DNA of 46,423 nt from an uncultured Pseudanabaenaceae cyanobacterium (GTDB taxonomy: Bacteria > Cyanobacteriota > Cyanobacteriia > PCC-9006 > JAAUQQ01). The translations under genes and the position numbers were made by a program. Shown here in pieces: positions 6,109 to 18,441 of this stretch. The DNA is taken from positions 1 through 46,423 of the forward strand of contig CALLAT010000032.1 of assembly GCA_938002085.1 (NCBI GenBank), written 5' to 3'. The notes below the pieces were generated by a model, which was not told the DNA's origin, made no database searches, and saw nothing but the letters and a program-made list of their open reading frames with translations. Numbering within the stretch: position 1 is the stretch's first letter; each line of letters opens with the position of its first letter.

Positions 6109-6462
6109 GTGGTAGGACATAAACTATTAGTGATCTAGATCATTTTTTAGATATTAATCATTCATAACTCAGCTAAATGACTTATGTAATTTGGCTGATT
6201 TGAGTGAAATAGAAAAGGATTTTTTTTGAATTGCGTGCAGCCTCTGACGTTTTGAAAAGATTCTATAAGCTGGGAACTTTGTAGACTAAAAAAACTACGC
6301 TTAAATGCTTGAAAAGCCTATATAGATAAGGTTCTGATTTTTATCCGGATGATTCTAAAACTATTTTCTTAGACTAATCTCTGGATAAAAACTATGTTTA
6401 GTTAAACCATTTCAAAGAGCTCTAACTTAGGGTTTAAAAGTGTTCCTTGAAATGTGTGTTCT
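6109..6462. other. AT-rich intergenic region with nested inverted repeat
   Basis: This 354-base stretch is clearly more AT-rich than its flanks and has no credible gene. TTTTTATCC at 6338-6346 pairs perfectly with 6383-6391, and inside that loop TCTAA pairs with TTAGA. The structure ends about 70 bases before the surface-protein start, so it may lie in its leader. A weak TGATCTAGATCA palindrome followed by six T at 6131-6148 may help end the ABC transcript, but its stem is short. Confidence 0.55.
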
Positions 6463-7509
6463 ATGAAAGTTCTCAGTCGTACTGCGCCACCCGTGATAGC
6501 AGTCACAACATTGCTAATGAGTTGGCCACTGGCCCAGCCTGCGATCGCTGCAAATTTAGGGGTTGCCAATGATTACAACGTGTTTGTTTTTAACGATTAC
6601 ACGCAAACTCCGCACTCTAGCGATGTCTGGGGACGTTTAGCAGTGGGTGGTAATGCAACCGCTCCAGGGGGTGTCAATCTGGTTTCACAACTCCCCAGCT
6701 CGTCTCAATTGTCAGGTTCAAATGCCCCTGCTTTAGTGGTGGGTGGTGATCTGACATTGAGTGCTCAGGTTCGCGGAGATGCCCTCGTGGGCGGGAACCT
6801 GTCTGCGGTGCCGAATCGGGGGACAGGCACGATTACTGGCGCTTTGACCAGTGCGGGCACTGTCGCTGGCGTTAATGTCATGGGAGGGGTAACGAATGAT
6901 CCGACTCTGGTTGGACAGAGCGGCACCCTCAACAGCTTTTTTACAGCTGCTTATAGCGAGTTGGCGACCCTTTCCAGCTCCTTGCAAGGTTTGTCTCCTA
7001 CGGGAACGGTCCAAAACAATTGGGGCAGTCTTCGCTTGGAAGGCTTGAATACCAGTACTAATGTTTTTTCGCTGACGGGCAGTCAATTGACGGGGTTGAA
7101 TAACCTCACGATTGATGCGCCCACAGGCTCCACGGTGGTAGTCAATGTGGATGGCGATGTCACGCTGCAAAACCATGCAATGAATTTGCTTGGGGTGCAA
7201 CGTGAGAATGTCCTGTTCAACCTTGTCAATGCTTCGACTGCGAATATTGGCACCTTGAACGGCGGTTTCTCTTTCCAGGGCAGTCTGCTGGCACCGGATG
7301 TGGATGTCTTTGGCTATAACGGAAACTTCGAAGGAACATTGGTGGCGAATTCATTTACGGGCACCTTGGAAGCGCATAACTATCAGTTTGAGGGAGTTCT
7401 GCCGGGTGACATTAGCCCGGATGCGGCGGTGCCAACGCCTGCTCTCCTGCCGGGCTTGCTGGGGCTTGCTGCGGCGATGCGAAAGCGTCATCAGCAGGCG
7501 GTTGCTTAG
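6463..7509 (+). CDS. Choice-of-anchor A family exported protein with PTPA-CTERM signal
   Basis: A secreted surface or matrix protein. From the ATG at 6463 it has a signal peptide of about 30 residues ending near QPAIAAN. A choice-of-anchor A domain follows (LGVANDYNVFVFNDYTQ and later VVGGDLTLSAQVRGDALVGG), predicted to be beta-rich with many Gly, Asn, Ser and Thr. The C-terminus has PTPALLPG, a hydrophobic stretch and a basic AMRKR tail. That tripartite tail is the cyanobacterial PTPA-CTERM sorting signal, cut by an exosortase and coupled to export to the envelope or beyond. No exosortase is in this window. A second in-frame ATG at 6454 is possible. An AT-rich structured region precedes it. 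Confidence 0.85.
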   Translation: MKVLSRTAPPVIAVTTLLMSWPLAQPAIAANLGVANDYNVFVFNDYTQTPHSSDVWGRLAVGGNATAPGGVNLVSQLPSSSQLSGSNAPALVVGGDLTLSAQVRGDALVGGNLSAVPNRGTGTITGALTSAGTVAGVNVMGGVTNDPTLVGQSGTLNSFFTAAYSELATLSSSLQGLSPTGTVQNNWGSLRLEGLNTSTNVFSLTGSQLTGLNNLTIDAPTGSTVVVNVDGDVTLQNHAMNLLGVQRENVLFNLVNASTANIGTLNGGFSFQGSLLAPDVDVFGYNGNFEGTLVANSFTGTLEAHNYQFEGVLPGDISPDAAVPTPALLPGLLGLAAAMRKRHQQAVA

Positions 7510-7758
7510 TTGTGTAACCTGCGTCTGGCTTATGTTTTGGGAGCTTGATACCGATTTGCATCAGCGAATGGAACGTTGCAATCGCCCTGGGGACGCTTGA
7601 TCTAGCGATCGCAACATCATCTTTCACAGAACGGTATGGGTCTCATCAATGTCTGAAAGCCTACGCGAAAGCGGTTTGGAGTCCCGTGGGTTTCCCATTT
7701 TCTCGATGAGAAACCTTTGGAATACTAATAGAGGAATGAGCCTCTAACGACTCTGCCC

Positions 7759-8877
7759 TTGGCAGAAATACTTTCTGTGGATGAGCGAGCATCGTTGCCG
7801 GCGCTTAAGCGTGAAGCTAGGCTCAGGTTAATGGATACGGTGACAGGCCTATTGATTGTCACCATGGCTGTGTTGACCTTGGCTCGTGCTTGGGCTGGCG
7901 CACCGCTGAACAATGTTGTTGTGCTGGCTGAAGGGTCTTACAGCTTGGTTCTGTTGGCTAGCTTGGGGCTAGCCCGCCGGTCCCGCTCCTTGGTGCTGTC
8001 GGCCTGGGTTCTTGTGATCGGCCTGTTGTTGACGATTCTGGTTGCTGCTTATCAGGCCGGTGGGTTAAATGCTCCTGTGCTGGTGGCTTTACCCTTTGTG
8101 CCGATGTTGGCAGCGCTGTTGTTGGGGCGGCGCTTTCTGCCCATCTTGACGGTGCTTGTGATTTCGCTTTTGCTGGGACTTTATGGCTTGCAATACCAAG
8201 GCTTGATTGAACCTCAGCCTCTGGATGAGGAAACCCGCAGCCTGTGCCAGTTCATCATGGTTCTATTGATCGTCTGGCTTTGCACCTGGTTGGGATACTA
8301 CTGCGATCGCCAGAATGATCAAATGTACGAACAGCTCTCGCTGTGGGCCCATACTGACGGTCTGACGGGAGTGGCCAATCGACGCTTTTTTGATGAGCGC
8401 TTAACCCAGGAGTGGTTACGGAATCAGCGGGTAAGGCGACCGTTGGCGTTGTTGTTGGTGGATATTGATCACTTCAAGCGCTACAACGATTCCTATGGCC
8501 ATGTGGAAGGCGATCGCTGTCTTCGGGCCATTGCCCAAACTCTGTTTATGCACTGCCGTCGTTCGGGAGAGCTGGTGGCTCGCTATGGCGGTGAGGAATT
8601 TGCGTTGATCTTGCCCAATGTTGACCTGCCGGAAGCGGCGGCGATCGCGGACAGCTTGCGCTTAAAAATTGAGAAGCTCCATGCTGCGGGACATCCTGAT
8701 CTACAAGAGAGAGTGACCGTCAGTATTGGGTTTTCGAGTATGGTGCCCCATGAATTTACGCCCCAGGAGCGCTTCGTTGTGCAAGCGGATCAGGCACTCT
8801 ATCGAGCCAAGCGATCCGGGCGCAATCAGTCTGTGGGGGCGGTTGGGCCAAGCGGGCGAGTCAATGCCACGAGTTAG
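7759..8877 (+). CDS. Membrane diguanylate cyclase (GGDEF)
   Basis: This 372-residue inner-membrane enzyme would make cyclic di-GMP from two GTP. Five or six hydrophobic helices span about residues 27-182, followed by a GGDEF domain (about 195-360). The active-site loop is intact as GGEEF (277-281), with the metal-binding VDIDHFKRYND upstream. The product-inhibition I-site, normally RxxD five residues before the loop, reads RSGE (268-271), so feedback control may be weakened. The start is uncertain: the longest frame begins with TTG at 7759 without a good ribosome site, and GTG 7777 or ATG 7831, just before the first helix, are alternatives. The gene ends 17 bases from the convergent MBOAT gene. 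Confidence 0.88.
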   Translation: MAEILSVDERASLPALKREARLRLMDTVTGLLIVTMAVLTLARAWAGAPLNNVVVLAEGSYSLVLLASLGLARRSRSLVLSAWVLVIGLLLTILVAAYQAGGLNAPVLVALPFVPMLAALLLGRRFLPILTVLVISLLLGLYGLQYQGLIEPQPLDEETRSLCQFIMVLLIVWLCTWLGYYCDRQNDQMYEQLSLWAHTDGLTGVANRRFFDERLTQEWLRNQRVRRPLALLLVDIDHFKRYNDSYGHVEGDRCLRAIAQTLFMHCRRSGELVARYGGEEFALILPNVDLPEAAAIADSLRLKIEKLHAAGHPDLQERVTVSIGFSSMVPHEFTPQERFVVQADQALYRAKRSGRNQSVGAVGPSGRVNATS

Positions 8878-8894
8878 CGAGCTGCGGGGAAAGC

Positions 8895-10424
8895 CTAAAA
8901 ATTGAAGTAGATGTAAGGAGTCGCACCTTCTTTGCCCAGTTGCCAAACGCCATAAAGCAGGAGAGGTACGAGGCTCAGCTTAATAGGCCAGTTGAGGTCA
9001 ACTTTAATGGAGCGCTTGATGCCGTACAGCGACGCCATAGCCCCGGAGATCATGGCAAGCAGTAAGCCAATTTGCCCCCGGCTGAGGCCTGTCACCTCGA
9101 CATAGACCTTCTCAGCAAATTGGGCATCGGCGCTGTGGCCAAACAGATGCATTAGGGCCATCCAGGCTTGGGAAACTTCTGGAAGGCGGAAGAATAGCCA
9201 GGAGAAAAAGACTAGGAGTTGAGTGATACCCCAAGCACTGATGATGCCAGGCGTGCTCTCCCACCAGGCCTGTAGAGCTGGGCGTTGCTTGCTCAACTCT
9301 GCGGTGAGGCGATGAACAACCAATGCAGCACCATGGATAGCGCCCCAGACGACAAATCCCCAGCTCGCATCATGCCAAATCCCTGCGATGACCATGATGA
9401 TCATGAGGTTGATGCAGGTGCGCTGCAAGCTCTTGCGCGATCCCCCTAGGGGAAAGTAAAGATAGTTGCGTAGCCAATCTCCCAGGGTCATGTGCCAGCG
9501 CCGCCAAAAGTCTGCAATGCTGGCGCTGAAGTAGGGGCTATTGAAGTTTTCGGGAAGCTCTAGACCCAAGAGCTTGGCGCTGCCTCGGGCAATGTCGACG
9601 TAACCGCTGAAATCTAGATAGAGCTGGAGGCCATAGCCCAGGGTGAGCATCCAAATATCGATGCTGCCTGCCCGTGCCAGGTTGTCAAAGCCGAGGCGAA
9701 CAATCATTTCCAGCTGATCTGCGAGGATCGCTTTCTTGGCGGCACCCCGGGCGATTAGCCAGAGCGCATCGGTGATCTGTTCGGCATTGGGAAAAACGCG
9801 ATCGCGCCATTGGGGGCTCAGGCTGTGGTACCGGGTAATGGGACCGGAGACCAGCTTGGCAAAAAACAGCTTGTAAGTGGTGAAGCGAAGCAGGCTGGGC
9901 GTGGCTGGTTTGCCGCGATAGACATCAACTAGATAAGCAATGCTCTCAAAGGTGAAGTAGCTGATGCCTAGTGGGACTAAGAGGCTACTGCTAACGGTCT
10001 CAGCGTTGGCTAGAAGACTAGGCTGCTGTAGCAATTCGCCCAGGCTCTTGAGCACAAAAGGAACGTACTTAAAGCCGAACAGCACCACGACGTTCAGCAC
10101 GATTCCCGCGATGAGATACCAGCGCCGCTTCTCATTCCAAAGGGTTTGGGCAGATTGCCAAGCCTCATTGGAGAGATCTTTGTCTCCGGCATGTTCTGGC
10201 AGAACAACCTTTTGATCTAAGGCACGACCAAAATAGAAGTTGACTGCGGTACTGATGAGGAAGAGTGGCAGATAGACTGCCATGGCTCCCTTGCCCTGCG
10301 TTGCAAAGAAGACAACGCTGGCCCCCAATAGAACGATCAGGCGCAGCCGCTCCTGCTCACAGATCCAGTAGAGCAGTAGAACAATTAAGAGGAATAGGGC
10401 GTAGGAGAGGGAGACAAAGGCCAT
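8895..10424 (-). CDS. MBOAT-family O-acyltransferase (AlgI/DltB-like)
   Basis: A 509-residue polytopic membrane protein of the MBOAT family, which moves acetyl or other acyl groups across or onto exported polymers, as AlgI does in alginate acetylation. About ten hydrophobic helices are visible. Conserved features are LVSGPITRYH (192-200), DFWRRWHMTLGDWLRNYLYF with His311, and GIWHDASWGFVVWGAIHG with His351 and His364. AlgI-like systems usually pair with a periplasmic SGNH/AlgJ-type partner. None is adjacent, so the acceptor is unknown; exopolysaccharide is plausible given the cellulose operon in the same window. It lies 187 bases downstream of the Pro/Ala-rich lipoprotein gene on the same strand. 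Confidence 0.88.
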   Translation of the reverse strand: MAFVSLSYALFLLIVLLLYWICEQERLRLIVLLGASVVFFATQGKGAMAVYLPLFLISTAVNFYFGRALDQKVVLPEHAGDKDLSNEAWQSAQTLWNEKRRWYLIAGIVLNVVVLFGFKYVPFVLKSLGELLQQPSLLANAETVSSSLLVPLGISYFTFESIAYLVDVYRGKPATPSLLRFTTYKLFFAKLVSGPITRYHSLSPQWRDRVFPNAEQITDALWLIARGAAKKAILADQLEMIVRLGFDNLARAGSIDIWMLTLGYGLQLYLDFSGYVDIARGSAKLLGLELPENFNSPYFSASIADFWRRWHMTLGDWLRNYLYFPLGGSRKSLQRTCINLMIIMVIAGIWHDASWGFVVWGAIHGAALVVHRLTAELSKQRPALQAWWESTPGIISAWGITQLLVFFSWLFFRLPEVSQAWMALMHLFGHSADAQFAEKVYVEVTGLSRGQIGLLLAMISGAMASLYGIKRSIKVDLNWPIKLSLVPLLLYGVWQLGKEGATPYIYFNF

Positions 10425-10611
10425 TCCGCAACCAAGCTACATCAACACAAATGCCTTGCATCTTACCCCATTGGGGGTTGGGGCCTAGCGTGACATTGAG
10501 CTGAGACCAGGCTGAGACGAGGGGAGGCTGGAATTCACAGGTCGGACTGATTGAACCTGCCCTGACTCGCCCCGTTGTGGATCCAACTGGTGGGTTGTGA
10601 GCCGGTGTGAT

Positions 10612-11442
10612 TTAGGGCTGGACGAGCAGCTGCCATTCGCTGCGATCGCCATTCCAATGGGGCAGCGATGTTTTTCCCACAACATAGGGACCCCAATAGC
10701 GCTGGGAGCCATCCTGGGCAAAGGCGACGATGACGTCTCCATCCTGAAGGGCAAGATCTCCCTCGGGCAGGGCCAGCAGCAGCCCATCGCGCCCACCCTC
10801 ATCAGGAGCGAAGTCCCAATGGAAGGGGGCTCGAATGGTCTGGCTGTCTGGGCTTGCGGTTTCTGGGCTCTCAGTATCCTGGCTGTTGGTTGCGGGACTA
10901 TTAATTTCAGGACTGTTGGCTGCGATCGCCGCTTCAGGAGAGGGTTCAACATCTGTGGGTGTCTCACCCTGGGCTAGAAAGGCGATGCGTAGCGGATGTT
11001 CTGTTTGGTTGCCAATGCGCAGAGGGCCTTGGTTTGTGCCCGATGTTGAGGCGGGAAATAGCTCGCTATTGGCCGTGCTAGAAGCCTGGCTCATGAGCTG
11101 CGGGATCACTTGGCTGGGCTCAGGGGGCTCGGCAGGAGTATCAGCCGGAGTCTCAATCTTATCCCTGGCTTTGACGGCGGCGGGCTCTGGGATGGCTGCT
11201 GGGGTTTGCTCGGCCGCTTGAGCTGGGGTGGTTCGGTGTTGAGGCGGGGCGGCAATCTGTTCGAGGTTACAGCTTGTGGTTAGGGTCGCCAGAAGCATTG
11301 AGCAAGCGAAGGCACAGCGACGCCAGTGGGTAACGACCGGGTTAGCTTGGGGAGCAATTGCCCCTGGGGTGATCCCCGCGCTTGGGTTAGGCTGCTGCGA
11401 TGGACAGTCAGATGGGCTGGGAGGGCATTGATGCAGACTCAT
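10612..11442 (-). CDS. Pro/Ala/Thr-rich putative lipoprotein
   Basis: The 276-residue protein has no family I recognise. After a 40-residue low-complexity N-terminus there is a signal-like segment (WRRCAFACSMLLATLTTSC) ending in a possible lipobox Cys near residue 58. A long disordered Pro/Ala/Glu/Ser region follows, including imperfect repeats of the type NSPxTNSQDTESPETASP around 180-205. A compact C-terminal part of about 70 residues (APFHWDFAPDEGGRDG to the end) is rich in Trp, Asp and Gly and may be the only folded domain. If it is a lipoprotein, the true start may be closer to the signal segment than the ATG at 11442, but no good internal start was found. It is probably exported to the envelope. 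Confidence 0.6.
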   Translation of the reverse strand: MSLHQCPPSPSDCPSQQPNPSAGITPGAIAPQANPVVTHWRRCAFACSMLLATLTTSCNLEQIAAPPQHRTTPAQAAEQTPAAIPEPAAVKARDKIETPADTPAEPPEPSQVIPQLMSQASSTANSELFPASTSGTNQGPLRIGNQTEHPLRIAFLAQGETPTDVEPSPEAAIAANSPEINSPATNSQDTESPETASPDSQTIRAPFHWDFAPDEGGRDGLLLALPEGDLALQDGDVIVAFAQDGSQRYWGPYVVGKTSLPHWNGDRSEWQLLVQP

Positions 11443-11723
11443 GTTGATTTTGAGCTAGATGCTGACGTGGGAGGTGGGTCACTGGAGAGAGGCGTTCGAG
11501 AGGCAAGGCGATGGTTTAGCTGGGCTGTGGAGATACTGAACGGATAAGGCGAGTGCTGAGTTGCCGATCGCCTATGCTGGAAAGGTCACAGCTTTATTAC
11601 CATGTCATCGTTTAAGGTAATGCGGAGCGATGATATTTGTTTTATTTTTAGTCAAAATTTATACATTTTTTGATCCCCTTCATAGCTTCCTTTTATTGAA
11701 GTCACCGCTTGGTTCAACCCCCC

Positions 11724-12047
11724 ATGCAAGACACTCGCCTGACCCGAATTTTAGAGAGTTCTGCCGATCGCCTCGGAGCTTGGTTTAGTAATCCCTGGCG
11801 TAAGCTCTCGGCCCAGATTATTAGCCTGTTGGGTGGCTTTTTTATTGGGAGTGCTTTGGCGGCGATCGCAGGTCAGGCAGCGGTTTGGGATACCCAGGTG
11901 GCGGCGATTCTAGTGGCGTTGATTGAGCTGATCAATTGGTTGATGGCAAAGACGAAGCCTCGGCCTTTGGGGTTGGAGCTGATTAATTACGCCAAGATTG
12001 GCTTTATCTATTGTTTGTTCCTGGAAGCGTTTAAGTTGGGCTCTTAG
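11724..12047 (+). CDS. Ycf20-like membrane protein (DUF565)
   Basis: This 107-residue protein matches the Ycf20/DUF565 family of cyanobacteria and chloroplasts. The family pattern is visible: WFSNPWRKLSAQIISLLGGF, then GSALAAIAGQAAVWDTQVAA, then a second hydrophobic stretch and IGFIYCLFLEAFKLG. Three hydrophobic segments suggest a thylakoid or inner-membrane location. In plants and algae Ycf20-like proteins are linked to photoprotective energy dissipation, but the molecular role is not established. The ATG at 11724 is chosen over an in-frame upstream TTG at 11709. The gene has its own 281-base upstream region shared with the divergent lipoprotein gene. Confidence 0.8.
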   Translation: MQDTRLTRILESSADRLGAWFSNPWRKLSAQIISLLGGFFIGSALAAIAGQAAVWDTQVAAILVALIELINWLMAKTKPRPLGLELINYAKIGFIYCLFLEAFKLGS

Positions 12048-12250
12048 GTCGGGCTTTGTAATGAAGGCTTCAGTTCTGGGATCGCTTGGAATGAGATGTT
12101 TGGGGCTTGGCGACTTCGGAATGAGGATTCAGTTCCGCTGTTAGGCATCCCACCCGATGGGGGATATGACATGGCTAGTTTCCTACGTGCTAACAGGCCT
12201 GATTACAGTTCCATTCTGTTGAGATCGCTGGTCTTTTCTTTTCTTTCACT

Positions 12251-13565: not shown

Positions 13566-14090
13566 ATGAATTCGACTTCTGCCAGTGAAATGATCAATGC
13601 TGCCATGATTAATGTGAGTGGGCGGCAGAGAATGCTGTCTCAGCGGGCAGCGATGCTGAGTCTCATGTTGACCCATGGATCGGAGCTTTCAGAGCCGGGG
13701 CAATTGCGAGAAGAGCTGCAGTTGGTGATTGATTTGTTGCAAGAAGCACATCAAGGGTTGCTGCGGGGGAGTGCTCGGCTCAATTTGCCGGGGAATCCAT
13801 CGGCAGCGGCTAAAGCGCTTTATTTTGACCCCCCGTTTCAGGTTGATCAGCGTCTGCAGGACTATATTGCAGGGCTTCATGCTGTGCTGGAGCAGCATCG
13901 GCAGAATGCGCTATTGCCGGGTGATCCTTTGTTGAGGGCTGTGACGGATGCGGCTTTGAATCATCTTCTGCCGGGGTTTGATGCGATTGTGACTCAGTAT
14001 CAAATGGAGAGTGATGTTCAGCAGGCGGCGATCGAACAGCAATGTCGTGAGGTAGCTAAAAAAGAAGGCTCGCTGTTACAGCAAGCTTAA
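13566..14090 (+). CDS. Free-standing PilJ-type N-terminal sensor domain protein
   Basis: The 174-residue protein is essentially one domain of the PilJ/NarX-type four-helix sensor family found at the N-terminus of type IV pilus chemoreceptors. The hallmark NVSGRQRMLSQR lies at residues 16-27. The rest is helical, ending in charged residues. Such domains normally sit in the periplasm between two membrane helices of a receptor. Here no signal peptide, membrane helix or output domain is present, so it is probably cytoplasmic and could act as a detached sensor or scaffold. The ATG at 13566 is preferred to an in-frame TTG at 13545. It converges with the RelE-like toxin gene, separated by 17 bases. 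Confidence 0.78.
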   Translation: MNSTSASEMINAAMINVSGRQRMLSQRAAMLSLMLTHGSELSEPGQLREELQLVIDLLQEAHQGLLRGSARLNLPGNPSAAAKALYFDPPFQVDQRLQDYIAGLHAVLEQHRQNALLPGDPLLRAVTDAALNHLLPGFDAIVTQYQMESDVQQAAIEQQCREVAKKEGSLLQQA

Positions 14091-14107: not shown

Positions 14108-14482
14108 TCAGCTTTCTTGCTCAGAGGACTCGTCAACTTCGTTGAAGGCGTCAATGATTTTTTTGATTTCGCGGGCGGCGATGGTGCTTTCGTCTGATTT
14201 TGAGTAGAGGGTGAGGAGCAATACACAGATATTGTCGCGGCGTTGGTAGATGACGCGGTAGCCACCGCTTTTGCCTTTTTTGATGTCGTTATTTTTGACG
14301 CGAACTTTGAAGACGGTGTAGGTGGTGCCGGAGATCTGGTCGCCTGGGCAGTTGCCGTTTTCGAGTTCGTCGAGGAGTGGTTGTAGGTCTTTGCGGAGGC
14401 TGCGGTAGCGTTTGGATAGCCGCCGAAGTTGTTTTTGAAAGTCTGGGGTGAAGCGGATCTGGATGGGGGAGGGGTCAGTCAT
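14108..14482 (-). CDS. RelE/ParE-superfamily toxin
   Basis: This 124-residue basic protein is probably the toxin of a type II toxin-antitoxin pair; relatives cleave ribosome-bound mRNA or poison gyrase. The fold is indicated by IQIRFTPDFQKQLRRLSKRY at the start, a central FKVRV segment, and GYRVIYQ followed by a hydrophobic strand VLLLTLYSKSD and a closing helix. The key C-terminal pattern is closer to RelE/HigB than to ParE, but exact activity cannot be assigned. The first eight bases overlap the end of the antitoxin gene (ATGACTGA), a usual arrangement. It is the last gene of the five-gene array starting with VapB. Confidence 0.85.
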   Translation of the reverse strand: MTDPSPIQIRFTPDFQKQLRRLSKRYRSLRKDLQPLLDELENGNCPGDQISGTTYTVFKVRVKNNDIKKGKSGGYRVIYQRRDNICVLLLTLYSKSDESTIAAREIKKIIDAFNEVDESSEQES

Positions 14483-14777
14483 TGATGCCGTCCCAGAGTT
14501 CAGAGACGGGTTTGGTTTGGCCTTGTTTGGCTTCTTGGAGGGAGATGCGGAGGTGGGCGTGGATGAGTTCTTCGGGGGTGTCGTCGGGGGCTGTGGGTGG
14601 GGTGAGGACGTTTCGGTCTAGGAGGATTTGGTAGAAGTCATCGACGTCGATGTTGATGAGTTGGGCGGCTTGTTCGATTAGGAGGGCTTGCTGTTGAAAG
14701 AGGGCGATTGCTACCTCAGTACGGATTGCGGTTTCGTTGAGGGATAGGTTGTCGGGGAGGTCGATGGTGATTTGCAT
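14475..14777 (-). CDS. Antitoxin partner of the RelE-like toxin
   Basis: The 100-residue acidic protein is the likely antitoxin. Its N-terminus (MQITIDLPDNLSLNET) resembles the UPF0175/RHH-like strand-helix start common in cyanobacterial antitoxins. A helical stretch (IRTEVAIALFQQQALLIEQAAQLINI) follows that looks like a helix-turn-helix core, then a Pro-rich flexible tail ending VSELWDGIND. Such a tail would wrap the toxin. It starts three bases after the NACHT stop codon and overlaps the toxin by eight bases, so all three are very probably on one mRNA. No own promoter space exists, unlike most autoregulated antitoxin operons, although an internal promoter inside the NACHT gene cannot be excluded. 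Confidence 0.8.
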   Translation of the reverse strand: MQITIDLPDNLSLNETAIRTEVAIALFQQQALLIEQAAQLINIDVDDFYQILLDRNVLTPPTAPDDTPEELIHAHLRISLQEAKQGQTKPVSELWDGIND

Positions 14778-14780
14778 GGT

Positions 14781-17663
14781 TTAGGCTCCTTGATCGGGTG
14801 TTTCGCTGAGTTTGTCGAAGTAGGTGATGGCGGCGATGGCGAAGGGATTGGTTTCAAGCTGCTGCTTGGCGACTTCGACGATGGTGGCTTTGAAGGCTTG
14901 GGCGTGGCGTTCGGGGTTGAGGAGTTGTTGGCGGAGGTTTTTGAGGCGGTGGTTTGGGGTGGTTTGGATTTCGGTGAATTCGGCGTCGATGATGGCTAGG
15001 GCTTCGGTTTCGTTGGTGATGTTGGGGTTTTGGGTTTGGAGGATGTTGAGGAATTCTTGGAGTTGGGTGATTGTGGATTGAATTTCGGGATTGGTGGTGT
15101 AGTTGCTTTGGATGCCGACTTGATTGCCTTGGATGGTAACGTCGCTTGTATTAAGGTTGCCGACTGAGCCGATGTGGAAAATGGGTTGGTTATTTGATTG
15201 CTGCATTTTAGAGATAGTTATACTGGTTTGAGTAGATAGAGGAAGCCTATTTCCTCTAAGTGATGCTGAAGCATCTATTGATGATTGCTGGCTTAGCTGG
15301 GATTGGGCTCGCTGATTCTTGAATATTTTGTAGCTGTAAAATTTGCAATTTTCTTGGATAGTGGCTATAGATTTCATGATGGCTGCGACCTCATTCTGGC
15401 CTTTTTCTGAACTTAAGTGGTCATATAAAAAATCTATAGATTTCGGAATGCAAAATTGTTCGATTGCTGCGATAAGTACAGTTGTGTTTGCAGTGTCATC
15501 ATGCTCTATGAGACTCTCTATAAATGCAAGAGCTTCGGAGTCTTTAGTTGTCCCCAATGCCCTGATAATCATAGAACATACGTATACAGAATGATCTGAT
15601 GATTTTTGTTCTTTCTTAAAAGCAGAAATGAGTGATGGAACGACTAGTGGATCATCAATTTTGGCTAGTCTAGTTGCTGCATGAGCTCGCACATCAAAAT
15701 GTGAATTTTTCAGTGCTCTATCTAGCAAAGATACTGCTCTGTGATGCTTTATCTCAGCCAAAGCCTTAACGCTCTGAATACGTAGCTTAGTACTTGCGTG
15801 ATCAATTAGTAGACCCATAAAATCTAGTAATTCATCTGACTCTGCCATTGGCATTTCTATATTAAGGCATGACAAATCTCGTTTTAGTGTGTCTATTGCC
15901 TCGGTGGAGATTGACTGCTTTATTGTGATTTTTTGTGGTGATGAATCTATATCAATGATATTTCTATTAGAATTTTTTTGAATCCTGATTAATTCTTTTT
16001 TCGCAAATTGTCGCACATGAAAAAGAGGGTGCTCTACAGATATTGCTTGTAGATGCTGAATAATATTGCTATTAGGAATTTCCCCTAATGCTTCAATGAC
16101 ATACGTATAGATGGATTCGCTATAGGTTAAATTAGTGGAGATAATATTAACAAGAACTTGAATAGATTTTTCTGTGCCAAGTACTCTCAAAGCCTCAATA
16201 ACATGATGGAATAAATCTTTTCTCTTGAGCAACTCTTCTAAAATTACTAGTGTTTGATTAGAGCCAGTTTCGCCAAGGAATTGGATGTACAGCTTCTTCG
16301 AGAAATTAAAATGAGACAGCACTTCTATGATTTTTTTTAAAAAATCAGGATGCACTTCCCCAGTCAACCGCGCCCCAAGCATAAAATCTACGTTTAAAGC
16401 CTGCTTTACTATCTTGACAACTTGTTTCTCATTCGCCATCAACGAAAGCCCGATTGCTACGCTCTCTGTCCACTTCAAATAATTCAAATAGTAATGCTGG
16501 AATTTCTCTGAATCCATCACATCTGAATGCCTGTTGTTAAACATTTCTAGCAATTCTTTTGCTGCATAATATTCCTGGAATAATTGATGATGAAATTCAA
16601 CTTTTCCTGGCTCTGCTGCATCTTGTAAAAGGTGATAATTGATGAGATCTTTAACCCAAAGCGCAGCTTTCGTTGGTGCATCTGTCATACCTCGACTGCG
16701 TAGCCAATCTTCCAAAATTTCTACTGCACGATCGTGTGGGAAGCTATACCATGCTTCAGTTGGCTTATCTAGATCTGCTTGAATCGTTGCAAAAGCTAGA
16801 TGCTGAAGGATCTGTGCCTTGAACAACCAGAAATTCTCTGAAACAGGAACATACTCAACCCCTTTTTTGATGCGCTCGTAGTCCCAGTCAAACCACTGGA
16901 ACAGTTCACCCTTGCTCTGCGGTAGCTCCCCTCTAGACTCAAATACATCACACAACATCTTTAGTAACAACGGCGTTTCGGCGATTTCACGCAACCTATC
17001 TCGCAACTGCCCTAATAACCGATCACCCTTCTCCCCCAAATAATTCCCTACAAACTTCTGCAACTGTGGCTCTGACAAAGGCTGCATCTCCAGCCGCTTC
17101 CCAATCCCCAAATCCCCACCCAAGCTCACATCCCGCGTCGTAAAAATCATTGCTACTGTCGAGTTCTCTTCCCGAAACAGCGCCAATTCTCGTCGCAACT
17201 CATCCGTCGGAACTTCATTCACCCCATCGAGCAGCAAGACCAAGCGATCTGCTAGCAGCCAATCCTCAATCTGCTCATCTGTTATCCGTTCCTTGGCTCT
17301 AGCTCGAAACTCCGCCTTAATCAGTTGCGGAACCGTCCGATTACCTTTTAATTGCACCAATACTGGAACTAGCCCATCCGCTGCCAAAGCCACCACTAGC
17401 TGCCGCAATACCGTCGATTTCCCCGAACCTGGCCGTCCTGCAAGCAACACATGTTCCCGCTTTTCTCCCAGTGCATACTTCCGCAACCCCTTCAGCACTG
17501 GAAGCTTCTCTACCTGCCGTATCTTGCCTTCTTGCTTCTGACGATGTATCGACTGCACTTTCAACGGCAATAATGCGTCCGTCGGAGTGTAGAACGAAGC
17601 ATTCTTAGAATAGTGAATGGCGATCGCATCTAAATATTGTTGAAACTCAACAGATGAATCCAT
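14781..17663 (-). CDS. NACHT NTPase with HEAT-like repeats (bacterial NLR-like)
   Basis: A 960-residue STAND-class ATPase. Numbering from the ATG at 17663, a short N-terminal region (1-65) leads into a NACHT domain with Walker A GRPGSGKST (76-84) and Walker B LVLLLDGVNE (141-150). A winged-helix-type region follows, including AETPLLLKMLCDVF. A long alpha-solenoid (about 420-820) contains HEAT-like units such as HFDVRAHAATRLAKIDDPLVV. The C-terminal 130 residues carry a GNxVGIQSNY segment and a helical tail. NACHT proteins of this build include bacterial antiphage NLRs, in which the repeats sense an invader. No classical N-terminal effector domain is seen, so the effector may be supplied in trans. 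The frame stays open upstream to an ATG at 17816 that overlaps VapC. The solenoid part is distinctly AT-rich. Confidence 0.87.
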   Translation of the reverse strand: MDSSVEFQQYLDAIAIHYSKNASFYTPTDALLPLKVQSIHRQKQEGKIRQVEKLPVLKGLRKYALGEKREHVLLAGRPGSGKSTVLRQLVVALAADGLVPVLVQLKGNRTVPQLIKAEFRARAKERITDEQIEDWLLADRLVLLLDGVNEVPTDELRRELALFREENSTVAMIFTTRDVSLGGDLGIGKRLEMQPLSEPQLQKFVGNYLGEKGDRLLGQLRDRLREIAETPLLLKMLCDVFESRGELPQSKGELFQWFDWDYERIKKGVEYVPVSENFWLFKAQILQHLAFATIQADLDKPTEAWYSFPHDRAVEILEDWLRSRGMTDAPTKAALWVKDLINYHLLQDAAEPGKVEFHHQLFQEYYAAKELLEMFNNRHSDVMDSEKFQHYYLNYLKWTESVAIGLSLMANEKQVVKIVKQALNVDFMLGARLTGEVHPDFLKKIIEVLSHFNFSKKLYIQFLGETGSNQTLVILEELLKRKDLFHHVIEALRVLGTEKSIQVLVNIISTNLTYSESIYTYVIEALGEIPNSNIIQHLQAISVEHPLFHVRQFAKKELIRIQKNSNRNIIDIDSSPQKITIKQSISTEAIDTLKRDLSCLNIEMPMAESDELLDFMGLLIDHASTKLRIQSVKALAEIKHHRAVSLLDRALKNSHFDVRAHAATRLAKIDDPLVVPSLISAFKKEQKSSDHSVYVCSMIIRALGTTKDSEALAFIESLIEHDDTANTTVLIAAIEQFCIPKSIDFLYDHLSSEKGQNEVAAIMKSIATIQENCKFYSYKIFKNQRAQSQLSQQSSIDASASLRGNRLPLSTQTSITISKMQQSNNQPIFHIGSVGNLNTSDVTIQGNQVGIQSNYTTNPEIQSTITQLQEFLNILQTQNPNITNETEALAIIDAEFTEIQTTPNHRLKNLRQQLLNPERHAQAFKATIVEVAKQQLETNPFAIAAITYFDKLSETPDQGA

Positions 17664-17755
17664 TGCCACGCAAAAGCTACTGCCAAAACTTATCTCATCA
17701 TAGCTATCGCACTTCGAACTGGTGAGATTGTCATACGCACTGATATAAAACTCGC

Positions 17756-18163
17756 CTAGCCAAACCAATTCTCCAGCTTTAGCCCCACAAAATTGGCAAA
17801 ATCGCTCACATTCCACGTCACCAAAACCAAGTCATTCACCGCCGCGATCGCCGCAATCTGCCCATCTGGATAAGACGGCGACTGCCCAATTCCAGCCAAC
17901 CTCGCCCGCTCAACAGCAAACCACTCAGCCGCTTGCCGCTCAAAGGACAAAATCACAAAATTGGTCTCCCGCAGATACTGCTCTAGCTGCTGCTTCCGCC
18001 GCGAACTCGCCATACGATTCAAGCCATACAGCAACTCATGCCAGGTGATGGAAGCGATCGCCACCTCATCAGCATGAGCCTGAAGCTGAGACATCACCTG
18101 AGCATCCGGTGCAGGTTTGAAAGGCTCCGAAATAATATTGGTATCTGCGAGATAGCGCACCAT
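17756..18163 (-). CDS. vapC: VapC-type PIN-domain toxin
   Basis: The 135-residue PIN ribonuclease is the likely toxin of a VapBC pair; family members cut tRNA or rRNA. From the ATG at 18163 the acidic residues expected at the metal site are Asp7 in YLADTNIISE, Glu43 in SITWHELLYG, Asp100 in SYPDGQIAAIA and Asp121 in VTWNVSDF. The usual VTRN is VTWN here, a small deviation. The start ATG overlaps the VapB stop as TAATG; a TTG two codons upstream is also in frame. A gap of 92 bases separates it from the NACHT start, but the NACHT frame itself extends into this gene, so coupling is possible. Confidence 0.9.
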   Translation of the reverse strand: MVRYLADTNIISEPFKPAPDAQVMSQLQAHADEVAIASITWHELLYGLNRMASSRRKQQLEQYLRETNFVILSFERQAAEWFAVERARLAGIGQSPSYPDGQIAAIAAVNDLVLVTWNVSDFANFVGLKLENWFG

Positions 18164-18441
18164 TACCAACGCGCGTCCAGCGGTGCCGGAGTTTGGTCCC
18201 TCACATCCGCAAAAATATCTTCGTCTTCTAGCAGCATCTCTTCTGAGTCAATTTGCGATCGCAGTAGCTGAATCGCCTCACCCAAGGAGCGCTTACCTGA
18301 GCCATCCTGCACAGGCGTTGAAATTGTCTTGCTGCCGCCTAGCCGCTCAACCAGAACCTCCACGAACCGCAGCACCTCCCGCAACATCCCTTCAGGAAGT
18401 AGCCGGAGACGTTCAAGAATTTGATCTTGGGTGCTTTGCAT
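18163..18441 (-). CDS. vapB: VapB-like antitoxin
   Basis: This 92-residue acidic protein precedes VapC and overlaps it by one base. The N-terminal helix region (ILERLRLLPEGMLREVLRFV) resembles the DUF2281/VapB-type antitoxins of cyanobacteria, where one helix pair mediates dimerisation. The C-terminal tail is strongly acidic (DSEEMLLEDEDIFADV) and would bind the toxin. It is the first gene of the five-gene array. The operon promoter should lie in the 165-base region shared with the divergent GTPase gene, and autoregulation by VapBC of that promoter would control the NACHT gene as well; this is inference. Confidence 0.82.
   Translation of the reverse strand: MQSTQDQILERLRLLPEGMLREVLRFVEVLVERLGGSKTISTPVQDGSGKRSLGEAIQLLRSQIDSEEMLLEDEDIFADVRDQTPAPLDARW

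What the first reader, a model, noticed from the sequence alone, without database searches (positions are those of the whole stretch)
14108..18441. NACHT ATPase enclosed between two toxin-antitoxin pairs in one array
Five minus-strand genes run VapB, VapC, NACHT-HEAT, antitoxin, RelE-like toxin. Junctions are TAATG overlap, 92 bases (with the NACHT frame open into VapC), 3 bases, and an 8-base overlap. NACHT proteins of bacteria are known antiphage NLRs, and toxins are known effectors. The NACHT protein shows no obvious N-terminal effector, so a trans-acting toxin released on sensing is a testable idea. Joint control by VapBC autoregulation is also possible.
Basis: partly seen in the sequence, partly recalled or inferred. 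Interest (0 to 1): 0.82.

Follow-up and report, generated by a model that had tools for sequence, protein, structure and literature searches.

The report
NACHT receptor operon with swappable toxin-antitoxin cassettes
A cyanobacterial immune-receptor-like gene belongs to a widespread gene family whose members repeatedly carry, in the same operon, one of about ten unrelated toxin-antitoxin pairs and a small partner protein that shares a matching short motif with the receptor's tail, which makes receptor-partner signalling and toxin recruitment in bacteria directly testable.

Summary
The five genes are present at the stated coordinates. The downstream antitoxin-toxin pair (UPF0175/RelN-RelE) next to NACHT is a real, recurrent association; the upstream VapBC pair is at background level. 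Across 135 related cyanobacterial NACHT-HEAT genes with readable downstream sequence, 46 have a toxin-antitoxin (TA) gene in the same-strand run just downstream, against 2 of 153 upstream and 3 of 104 random genes. All 17 UPF0175 genes downstream in 20 whole genomes lie on the same strand; 8 loci have one where 0.11 are expected. The TA family changes at least 25 times on the NACHT tree and does not follow NACHT descent: it is an exchangeable cassette. The constant partner is a C-terminal helical domain (CTD), fused here but separate in 40 relatives; 14 loci carry TA genes nested between NACHT and CTD. When separate, NACHT's tail and the CTD's head carry matching ~27-residue motifs (permutation p<5e-5); fused proteins keep one copy (30 of 31). 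This resembles paired amyloid-signalling motifs of NLR-effector systems, with the layout inverted. Most relatives lack TA, so the toxin is probably an accessory arm. Anti-phage function and mechanism are untested.

The parts
18163..18441 (-). VapB-like antitoxin, 92 aa (upstream pair; probably a chance neighbour)
   Evidence: Sub-threshold DUF2281 17.3 bits and NCBIfam VapB 16.5 bits; upstream TA at background frequency
17756..18163 (-). VapC PIN-domain toxin, 135 aa; start overlaps the vapB stop (TAATG)
   Evidence: PIN 45.4 bits; closest solved proteins are tRNA(fMet)-specific VapC, E 9e-10
14781..17663 (-). NACHT-HEAT-CTD protein, 960 aa (ATG 17663)
   Evidence: NACHT 31.0 bits, HEAT_2 81.5 bits; start set by the relatives; AlphaFold model matches NLRC4/NOD2/Avs4
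17412..17438 (-). Walker A, GRPGSGKST
   Evidence: PGSGKS among the invariant columns over 20 relatives
17214..17243 (-). Walker B region, LVLLLDGVNE
   Evidence: D, G, N and E invariant in relatives
15339..16301 (-). HEAT-repeat region (presumed sensor), fast-evolving
   Evidence: Pfam HEAT_2; best relative only 26% identical against 61% for the NACHT part
15102..15182 (-). Motif IFHIGSVGNLNTSDVTIQGNQVGIQSN, single copy in this fused protein; disordered in the models
   Evidence: Homologous to the paired tail/head motifs of split loci; pLDDT 22-36
14805..15089 (-). C-terminal helical domain (CTD); a separate gene in many relatives
   Evidence: Five helices; 17 of 19 CTD hits in 20 genomes lie at this NACHT subfamily's loci
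14786..14791 (-). Shine-Dalgarno-like AAGGAG for RelN inside the NACHT 3' end
   Evidence: Read directly from the sequence
14475..14777 (-). Antitoxin, 100 aa: UPF0175 N-terminal part plus RelN C-terminal part
   Evidence: UPF0175 30.3 bits, RelN E 5.5e-13
14108..14482 (-). RelE/HigB-type toxin, 124 aa, overlapping RelN by 8 nt
   Evidence: ParE_toxin 29.9 bits; HigB-2 is the closest solved family
14068..14086 (-). Terminator-like hairpin after the toxin gene
   Evidence: 8-pair stem followed by a T-rich run

Best explanation
This is one member of a cyanobacterial NLR-like defence operon with a constant core and an exchangeable cassette. The constant core is a NACHT-HEAT receptor plus a motif-linked helical partner domain (CTD), fused to the receptor here. 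When the two are separate proteins, a matching short motif on the receptor's tail and the partner's head probably recruits or templates one onto the other. The cassette is a type II (sometimes type VII) toxin-antitoxin pair translated from the same operon, directly after the receptor or nested between receptor and partner; here it is UPF0175/RelN-RelE. Inferred mechanism: the HEAT repeats sense an invader, NACHT oligomerises and clusters the motif-CTD units, which signal or execute. The TA toxin is a co-expressed second arm (growth arrest, or stabilisation of the locus) that is triggered by loss of its labile antitoxin rather than being the receptor's obligate effector. The upstream VapBC is an incidental neighbour. 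Shown by comparison: operon-like association, cassette exchange, CTD partnership, motif pairing. Inferred: sensing, oligomerisation, amyloid-like pairing, toxin role.
For: TA genes make up 99 of 199 operonic downstream genes (46 of 135 loci) against 2 of 153 loci upstream, 3 of 104 random anchors and 3 of 128 far-flank anchors. An independent Pfam test in 20 whole genomes: 8 of 26 subfamily loci have UPF0175 downstream against 0.11 expected; 17 of 17 genes same strand. Cassette families are seen; presence changes at least 29 times and class at least 25 times on the tree. NACHT and RelE identities are uncorrelated over 9 loci (rho 0.21, p 0.21). CTD: 17 of 19 hits at subfamily NACHT loci; fused/split changes at least 24 times. 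TA nested between NACHT and CTD in 14 loci, with the toxin stop overlapping the CTD start by 4 nt in 6 loci with RelE, ParE or PIN toxins. Motif pairing: own-pair score 65.5 against 31.1 between loci, 0 of 20000 permutations; motif conserved over the linker in four of five classes, and synonymous sites near saturation (51% same codon, 42% expected); single copy in 30 of 31 fused proteins. NLR fold: best matches NLRC4 and NOD2.
Against: 85 of 131 scorable NACHT relatives have no TA gene in the run, mostly in heterocystous cyanobacteria and Moorena, so the core works without it. The TA profiles were seeded from downstream genes, which inflates the contrast (avoid that bias). A few other NACHTs also have TA neighbours (4 of 99 for UPF0175; 2 of 22). 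No anti-phage activity, transcript or protein interaction has been measured. The window genome is a 62.6%-complete draft. The CTD has no fold match.
Confidence: 0.6

Rival explanations
1. The TA toxin is the receptor's trans-acting effector: NACHT activation, through its motif-CTD unit, removes or inactivates the antitoxin and frees the toxin to stop translation.
For: Tight coupling (gaps of -4 to about 50 nt) and nesting of TA between receptor and partner. No N-terminal effector: the model shows only about 60 residues before the NACHT core. Precedent: MaOC1 caspase cleaves the antitoxin encoded just downstream (PMC7935541).
Against: Most relatives lack TA. About ten unrelated antitoxin families would all have to be recognised. 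TA and NACHT lineages are discordant. No protease domain was found in NACHT or CTD.
Confidence: 0.25
2. TA pairs are addiction cassettes or selfish passengers that insert downstream of this receptor because loss of the locus is then punished, or because the HEAT-motif-CTD end is a recombination hot spot; they take no part in defence.
For: Frequent exchange and multi-TA arrays (L095, L112, L138). TA pairs are very abundant in cyanobacteria (69 in Synechocystis 6803, PMC4963859). A compositional break at the CTD-RelN-RelE segment of the window gene suggests a recombined 3' end.
Against: Strict same-strand, operonic placement with translational coupling in at least six cyanobacterial families; far higher than the local background in the same flanks; reading frames preserved around nested pairs.
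Confidence: 0.25
3. The five-gene array is a chance juxtaposition of unrelated genes.
For: Fits the upstream VapBC pair.
Against: Excluded for the downstream pair and the CTD.
Confidence: 0.03
4. The tail/head motif match is only a relic of duplication of the CTD linker when TA pairs inserted, with no pairing function.
For: Truncated CTD copies occur in arrays (L091, L095).
Against: Synonymous sites are near saturation; motifs are usually better conserved than the adjacent linker (not in class v, 0.76 against 0.71); split loci without any TA between also carry the pair (L232, L190, L107, L148); fused proteins keep a single copy.
Confidence: 0.15

Closest known systems
Bacterial NACHT / NLR-related antiphage proteins (bNACHT, Avs)
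   Same: Central NACHT ATPase with Walker A/B, C-terminal repeat region; model matches NLRC4, NOD2 and Avs4
   Different: No known N-terminal effector; C-terminal motif-CTD module; exchangeable TA pair in the operon; defence not tested
BASS / BELL amyloid NLR signalosomes (review PMC7889193; PMC8086366)
   Same: Adjacent genes for an NLR and a small helical protein that share a short motif; cyanobacteria included; several motif classes
   Different: There the motif is at the NLR N-terminus and the effector C-terminus; here it is at the NLR C-terminus and the partner N-terminus, or fused. No obvious membrane helix in the CTD by eye; amyloid formation untested
MaOC1 orthocaspase with its downstream ParDE-like TA pair, Microcystis (PMC7935541)
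   Same: Cyanobacterial cell-death-type gene followed on the same strand by a RelE/ParE-family TA pair; functional link shown in E. coli
   Different: Protease instead of NACHT; 152-bp direct repeats flank that TA pair, none were found here
RelNEs (ssr1114/slr0664) of Synechocystis 6803 (listed in PMC4963859)
   Same: RelN-type antitoxin C-terminus and RelE/HigB-type toxin
   Different: Antitoxin N-terminus is UPF0175-like; co-operonic with NACHT
VapBC, tRNA(fMet)-specific VapC
   Same: PIN toxin, overlapping antitoxin gene
   Different: VapB only sub-threshold; a same-strand neighbour of NACHT in this genome only

Membership tests
NACHT / NLR-related protein | NACHT domain over the curated cut-off | tested here: met
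   31.0 against 26.7 bits
NACHT / NLR-related protein | Intact Walker A and B | tested here: met
   GRPGSGKST; LLLDGVNE
NACHT / NLR-related protein | C-terminal repeat sensor region and NLR fold | tested here: met
   HEAT repeats; Foldseek NLRC4 E 2.5e-10, whole-chain TM-score only about 0.3
NACHT / NLR-related protein | Protects against phage | not testable with these tools
   Needs phage challenge
UPF0175/RelN-RelE type II TA pair | Antitoxin gene overlapping or adjacent to a RelE/ParE-fold toxin gene | tested here: met
   8-nt overlap; UPF0175 30.3 and ParE_toxin 29.9 bits, over cut-offs
RelN family antitoxin (NF050107) | Score over NCBIfam's cut-off of 70 bits | tested here: not met
   49.3 bits, C-terminal half only; the N-terminal half is UPF0175
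VapBC | PIN toxin with VapB antitoxin over cut-off | tested here: inconclusive
   PIN met (45.4 against 23.6); VapB/DUF2281 below cut-off
BASS amyloid NLR signalosome | Shared motif in adjacent NLR and helical partner | tested here: met
   36 split loci, permutation p<5e-5; the window's own protein is the fused form
BASS amyloid NLR signalosome | Motif at NLR N-terminus and effector C-terminus | tested here: not met
   Motif is at the NLR C-terminus and partner N-terminus
BASS amyloid NLR signalosome | Motif forms seeding amyloid | not testable with these tools
   Needs fibril and seeding assays; BASS profiles not held
MaOC1-like protease-controlled TA | Protease domain in the linked gene | tested here: not met
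   No protease family in Pfam

The most novel reading that the evidence does not exclude
A bacterial NLR signalling system of inverted layout: the receptor's C-terminal motif templates a matching N-terminal motif on a separate helical partner, and this switch controls a plug-in toxin-antitoxin cassette nested between them, so that unrelated toxins (RelE, PIN, ParE, HEPN and others) can serve the same receptor.
Probability: 0.2. Interest if true: 0.93.

Novelty: new variant of a known kind. Interest (0 to 1): 0.74.

Why it matters
If right, it links three separate fields: bacterial NLRs, short-motif (possibly amyloid) signalling, and toxin-antitoxin pairs whose cellular role is debated. It gives a natural series of closely related receptors carrying different toxins, a natural split/fused series for testing motif pairing, and a genomic context that predicts which of the many cyanobacterial TA pairs work in defence.

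Tried and rejected
(1) VapBC as a conserved upstream partner: rejected, background frequency. (2) CTD as a known domain: no meaningful Pfam hit, no PDB fold match; a link to TRADD-N was considered from PMC8195603 but not supported. (3) N-terminal effector on NACHT: none found. (4) Direct repeats flanking the TA pair, as at MaOC1: none in the window. (5) Plasmid carriage: one plasmid relative only, Calothrix PCC 6303. (6) CTD presence as predictor of TA presence: raw counts agree (37 of 80 with CTD against 9 of 51 without) but phylogenetically independent pairs are inconclusive, median p 0.125. (7) Recent duplication as the source of the motif match: rejected on codon identity.

Full report
What is there. 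The contig belongs to a cyanobacterial draft genome (176 contigs, 62.6% complete) whose close NACHT relatives are named Leptolyngbyaceae, Pantanalinema and Alkalinema. Five minus-strand genes run VapB, VapC, NACHT-HEAT, UPF0175/RelN antitoxin and RelE-type toxin. The NACHT start that fits the relatives is ATG 17663; the longer frame into VapC is incidental. The RelN ribosome-binding site (AAGGAG, 14786-14791) lies inside the NACHT 3' end. A terminator-like hairpin follows RelE. The VapC acidic residues and the NACHT Walker A and B motifs are intact by inspection.

Is the neighbourhood more than chance? I collected 155 distinct NACHT genes of this subfamily from two searches that used only the NACHT domain. 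Unbiased clustering of neighbours showed that the families recurring mainly downstream on the same strand are the HEAT/CTD cluster, UPF0175 and RelE, plus several smaller TA-like families. Pfam and NCBIfam scans of 135 downstream run genes gave UPF0175 17, DUF3368 10, RelN 10, DUF2281/VapB 9, ParE 9, PIN 6, ParD 3, TumA 2, TumE 2, MntA 2. The same Pfam scan of 99 upstream genes gave Trypco1 10 and few TA families. With broad TA profiles, 46 of 135 downstream runs hold a TA gene, against 2 of 153 upstream, 3 of 104 random genes, 3 of 128 genes in far flanks and 2 of 22 other NACHTs (Fisher p 4e-15, 3e-10, 2e-12 and 0.02 in that order). Those profiles were seeded from downstream genes, so I rely also on an independent test. 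Pfam UPF0175 searched in 20 whole genomes gives 79 genes; 17 of them lie within 7 kb downstream of 8 of the 26 subfamily NACHTs, all 17 on the same strand, where 0.11 loci are expected. Other NACHTs show 4 of 99.

The cassette is exchangeable. Families at the position include UPF0175-DUF3368, UPF0175/RelN-RelE, ParDE, DUF2281-PIN, ribbon-helix-helix-PIN, DUF433-DUF5615, MNT-HEPN, TumA-TumE and XisH-XisI (names partly by Pfam or NCBIfam tallies, partly by my reading of the sequences). On a tree of 155 NACHTs, TA presence changes at least 29 times and TA class at least 25 times; near neighbours such as L094 and L224 (tree distance 0.17) carry MNT-HEPN and UPF0175-PIN. Over nine loci NACHT identity does not predict RelE identity: the window's NACHT is 61% identical to L166 but their RelE only 46%, while its RelE is 63-67% identical to those of L151, L146, L095 and L116, whose NACHTs are 40-45% identical. 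A compositional break inside the window gene fits this: the CTD-RelN-RelE segment is C-rich on the coding strand, the HEAT part is AT-rich and the NACHT part G-rich.

The constant partner. The last ~140 residues of the window protein form a module of their own: a disordered motif and a five-helix domain. In 20 genomes 17 of 19 CTD matches lie at this NACHT subfamily's loci. The CTD is fused in 42 loci, a separate downstream gene in 40, and the state changes at least 24 times. In 14 loci TA genes lie between NACHT and a separate CTD gene; in six of these the toxin stop overlaps the CTD start by 4 nt, with toxins of the RelE, ParE and PIN types.

Matching motifs. In split loci the NACHT tail and the CTD head share a motif of about 27 residues, 56% identical. 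The motif falls into several classes, such as GNxNTGDVTIxGDQxG, FPNAxxVxIFExV, QIIExNxGxVIG, GNVEGDMI and VxGDNIxTQNN. Own pairs score 65.5 on average against 31.1 for pairs across loci, with none of 20000 permutations as high. Shuffled tails score 22.6 and control segments 20.1. Motifs are better conserved than the preceding linker in four of five classes (the exception, class v, comes from close relatives), and synonymous codons are close to random, so the match is not a recent duplication. Of 31 fused proteins checked, 30 have a single copy; L184, the exception, looks like a read-through fusion of a split pair. A motif kept on both partners when they are separate, but once when they are fused, points to receptor-partner recruitment.

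Comparison with what is known. NLRs and partner proteins sharing amyloid-signalling motifs are described in fungi and, as BASS/BELL pairs, in actinobacteria and cyanobacteria, with the motif at the NLR N-terminus and the effector C-terminus (PMC7889193, PMC8086366, PMC12261475). Here the layout is inverted and amyloid behaviour is untested, so it works like such a pair but is not filed as one. A cyanobacterial orthocaspase that cleaves the antitoxin of the TA pair just downstream (PMC7935541) is the nearest precedent for a cell-death protein controlling a neighbouring TA pair. My literature searches found no description of NACHT-TA operons; the library lacks most subscription journals, so this is not proof of absence.

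Judgement. The downstream association is real and general; the VapBC flank is not part of it. Whether the toxin is the receptor's effector, an independent second arm, or a stabilising passenger is open. I favour the accessory second arm because the core exists without TA in most relatives (85 of 131) and because the cassettes are unrelated and travel independently.

Noticed in passing
L208:13325-13867: By eye a DUF4062-type (TIR-like NADase) gene follows a TA-less NACHT relative by 36 nt; DUF4062 was recently described as an antiphage NADase (abstract of PMC13174449). An alternative effector in the cassette position? Not confirmed by a family search.
   Followed up: no
upstream genes in alignment A4, for example L085:12143-12403: Trypco1-domain genes lie in the same-strand run upstream of this NACHT in about 10 loci; possibly another conflict-system component.
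   Followed up: partly
L116 (G210:C1), 6216-12218: A second NACHT enclosed by TA pairs: UPF0175-DUF3368 upstream; UPF0175/RelN-RelE, RelN and UPF0175-DUF3368 downstream.
   Followed up: partly
L051:3716-6253, L052:2055-4760, L053:3791-7798: Weak CTD-like C-termini, at least one with a similar GDQIG-type motif, also end an LRR-Roc-like protein, a SNF2-type helicase and a large STAND-like protein: the motif-CTD tail may be a general cyanobacterial conflict-system module.
   Followed up: no
L104:1041-1579 and L110:7626-8362: XisH/XisI genes occupy the TA position, which suggests that they may form a TA-like pair.
   Followed up: no
L044:4677-8573: A NACHT relative interrupted by one in-frame stop codon (G056:C53), with CTD, UPF0175 and PIN genes still following.
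   Followed up: no
window 16224-17663 against 15195-16223: The HEAT part diverges far faster (best 26% identity) than the NACHT part (61%), as expected of a sensor region.
   Followed up: partly
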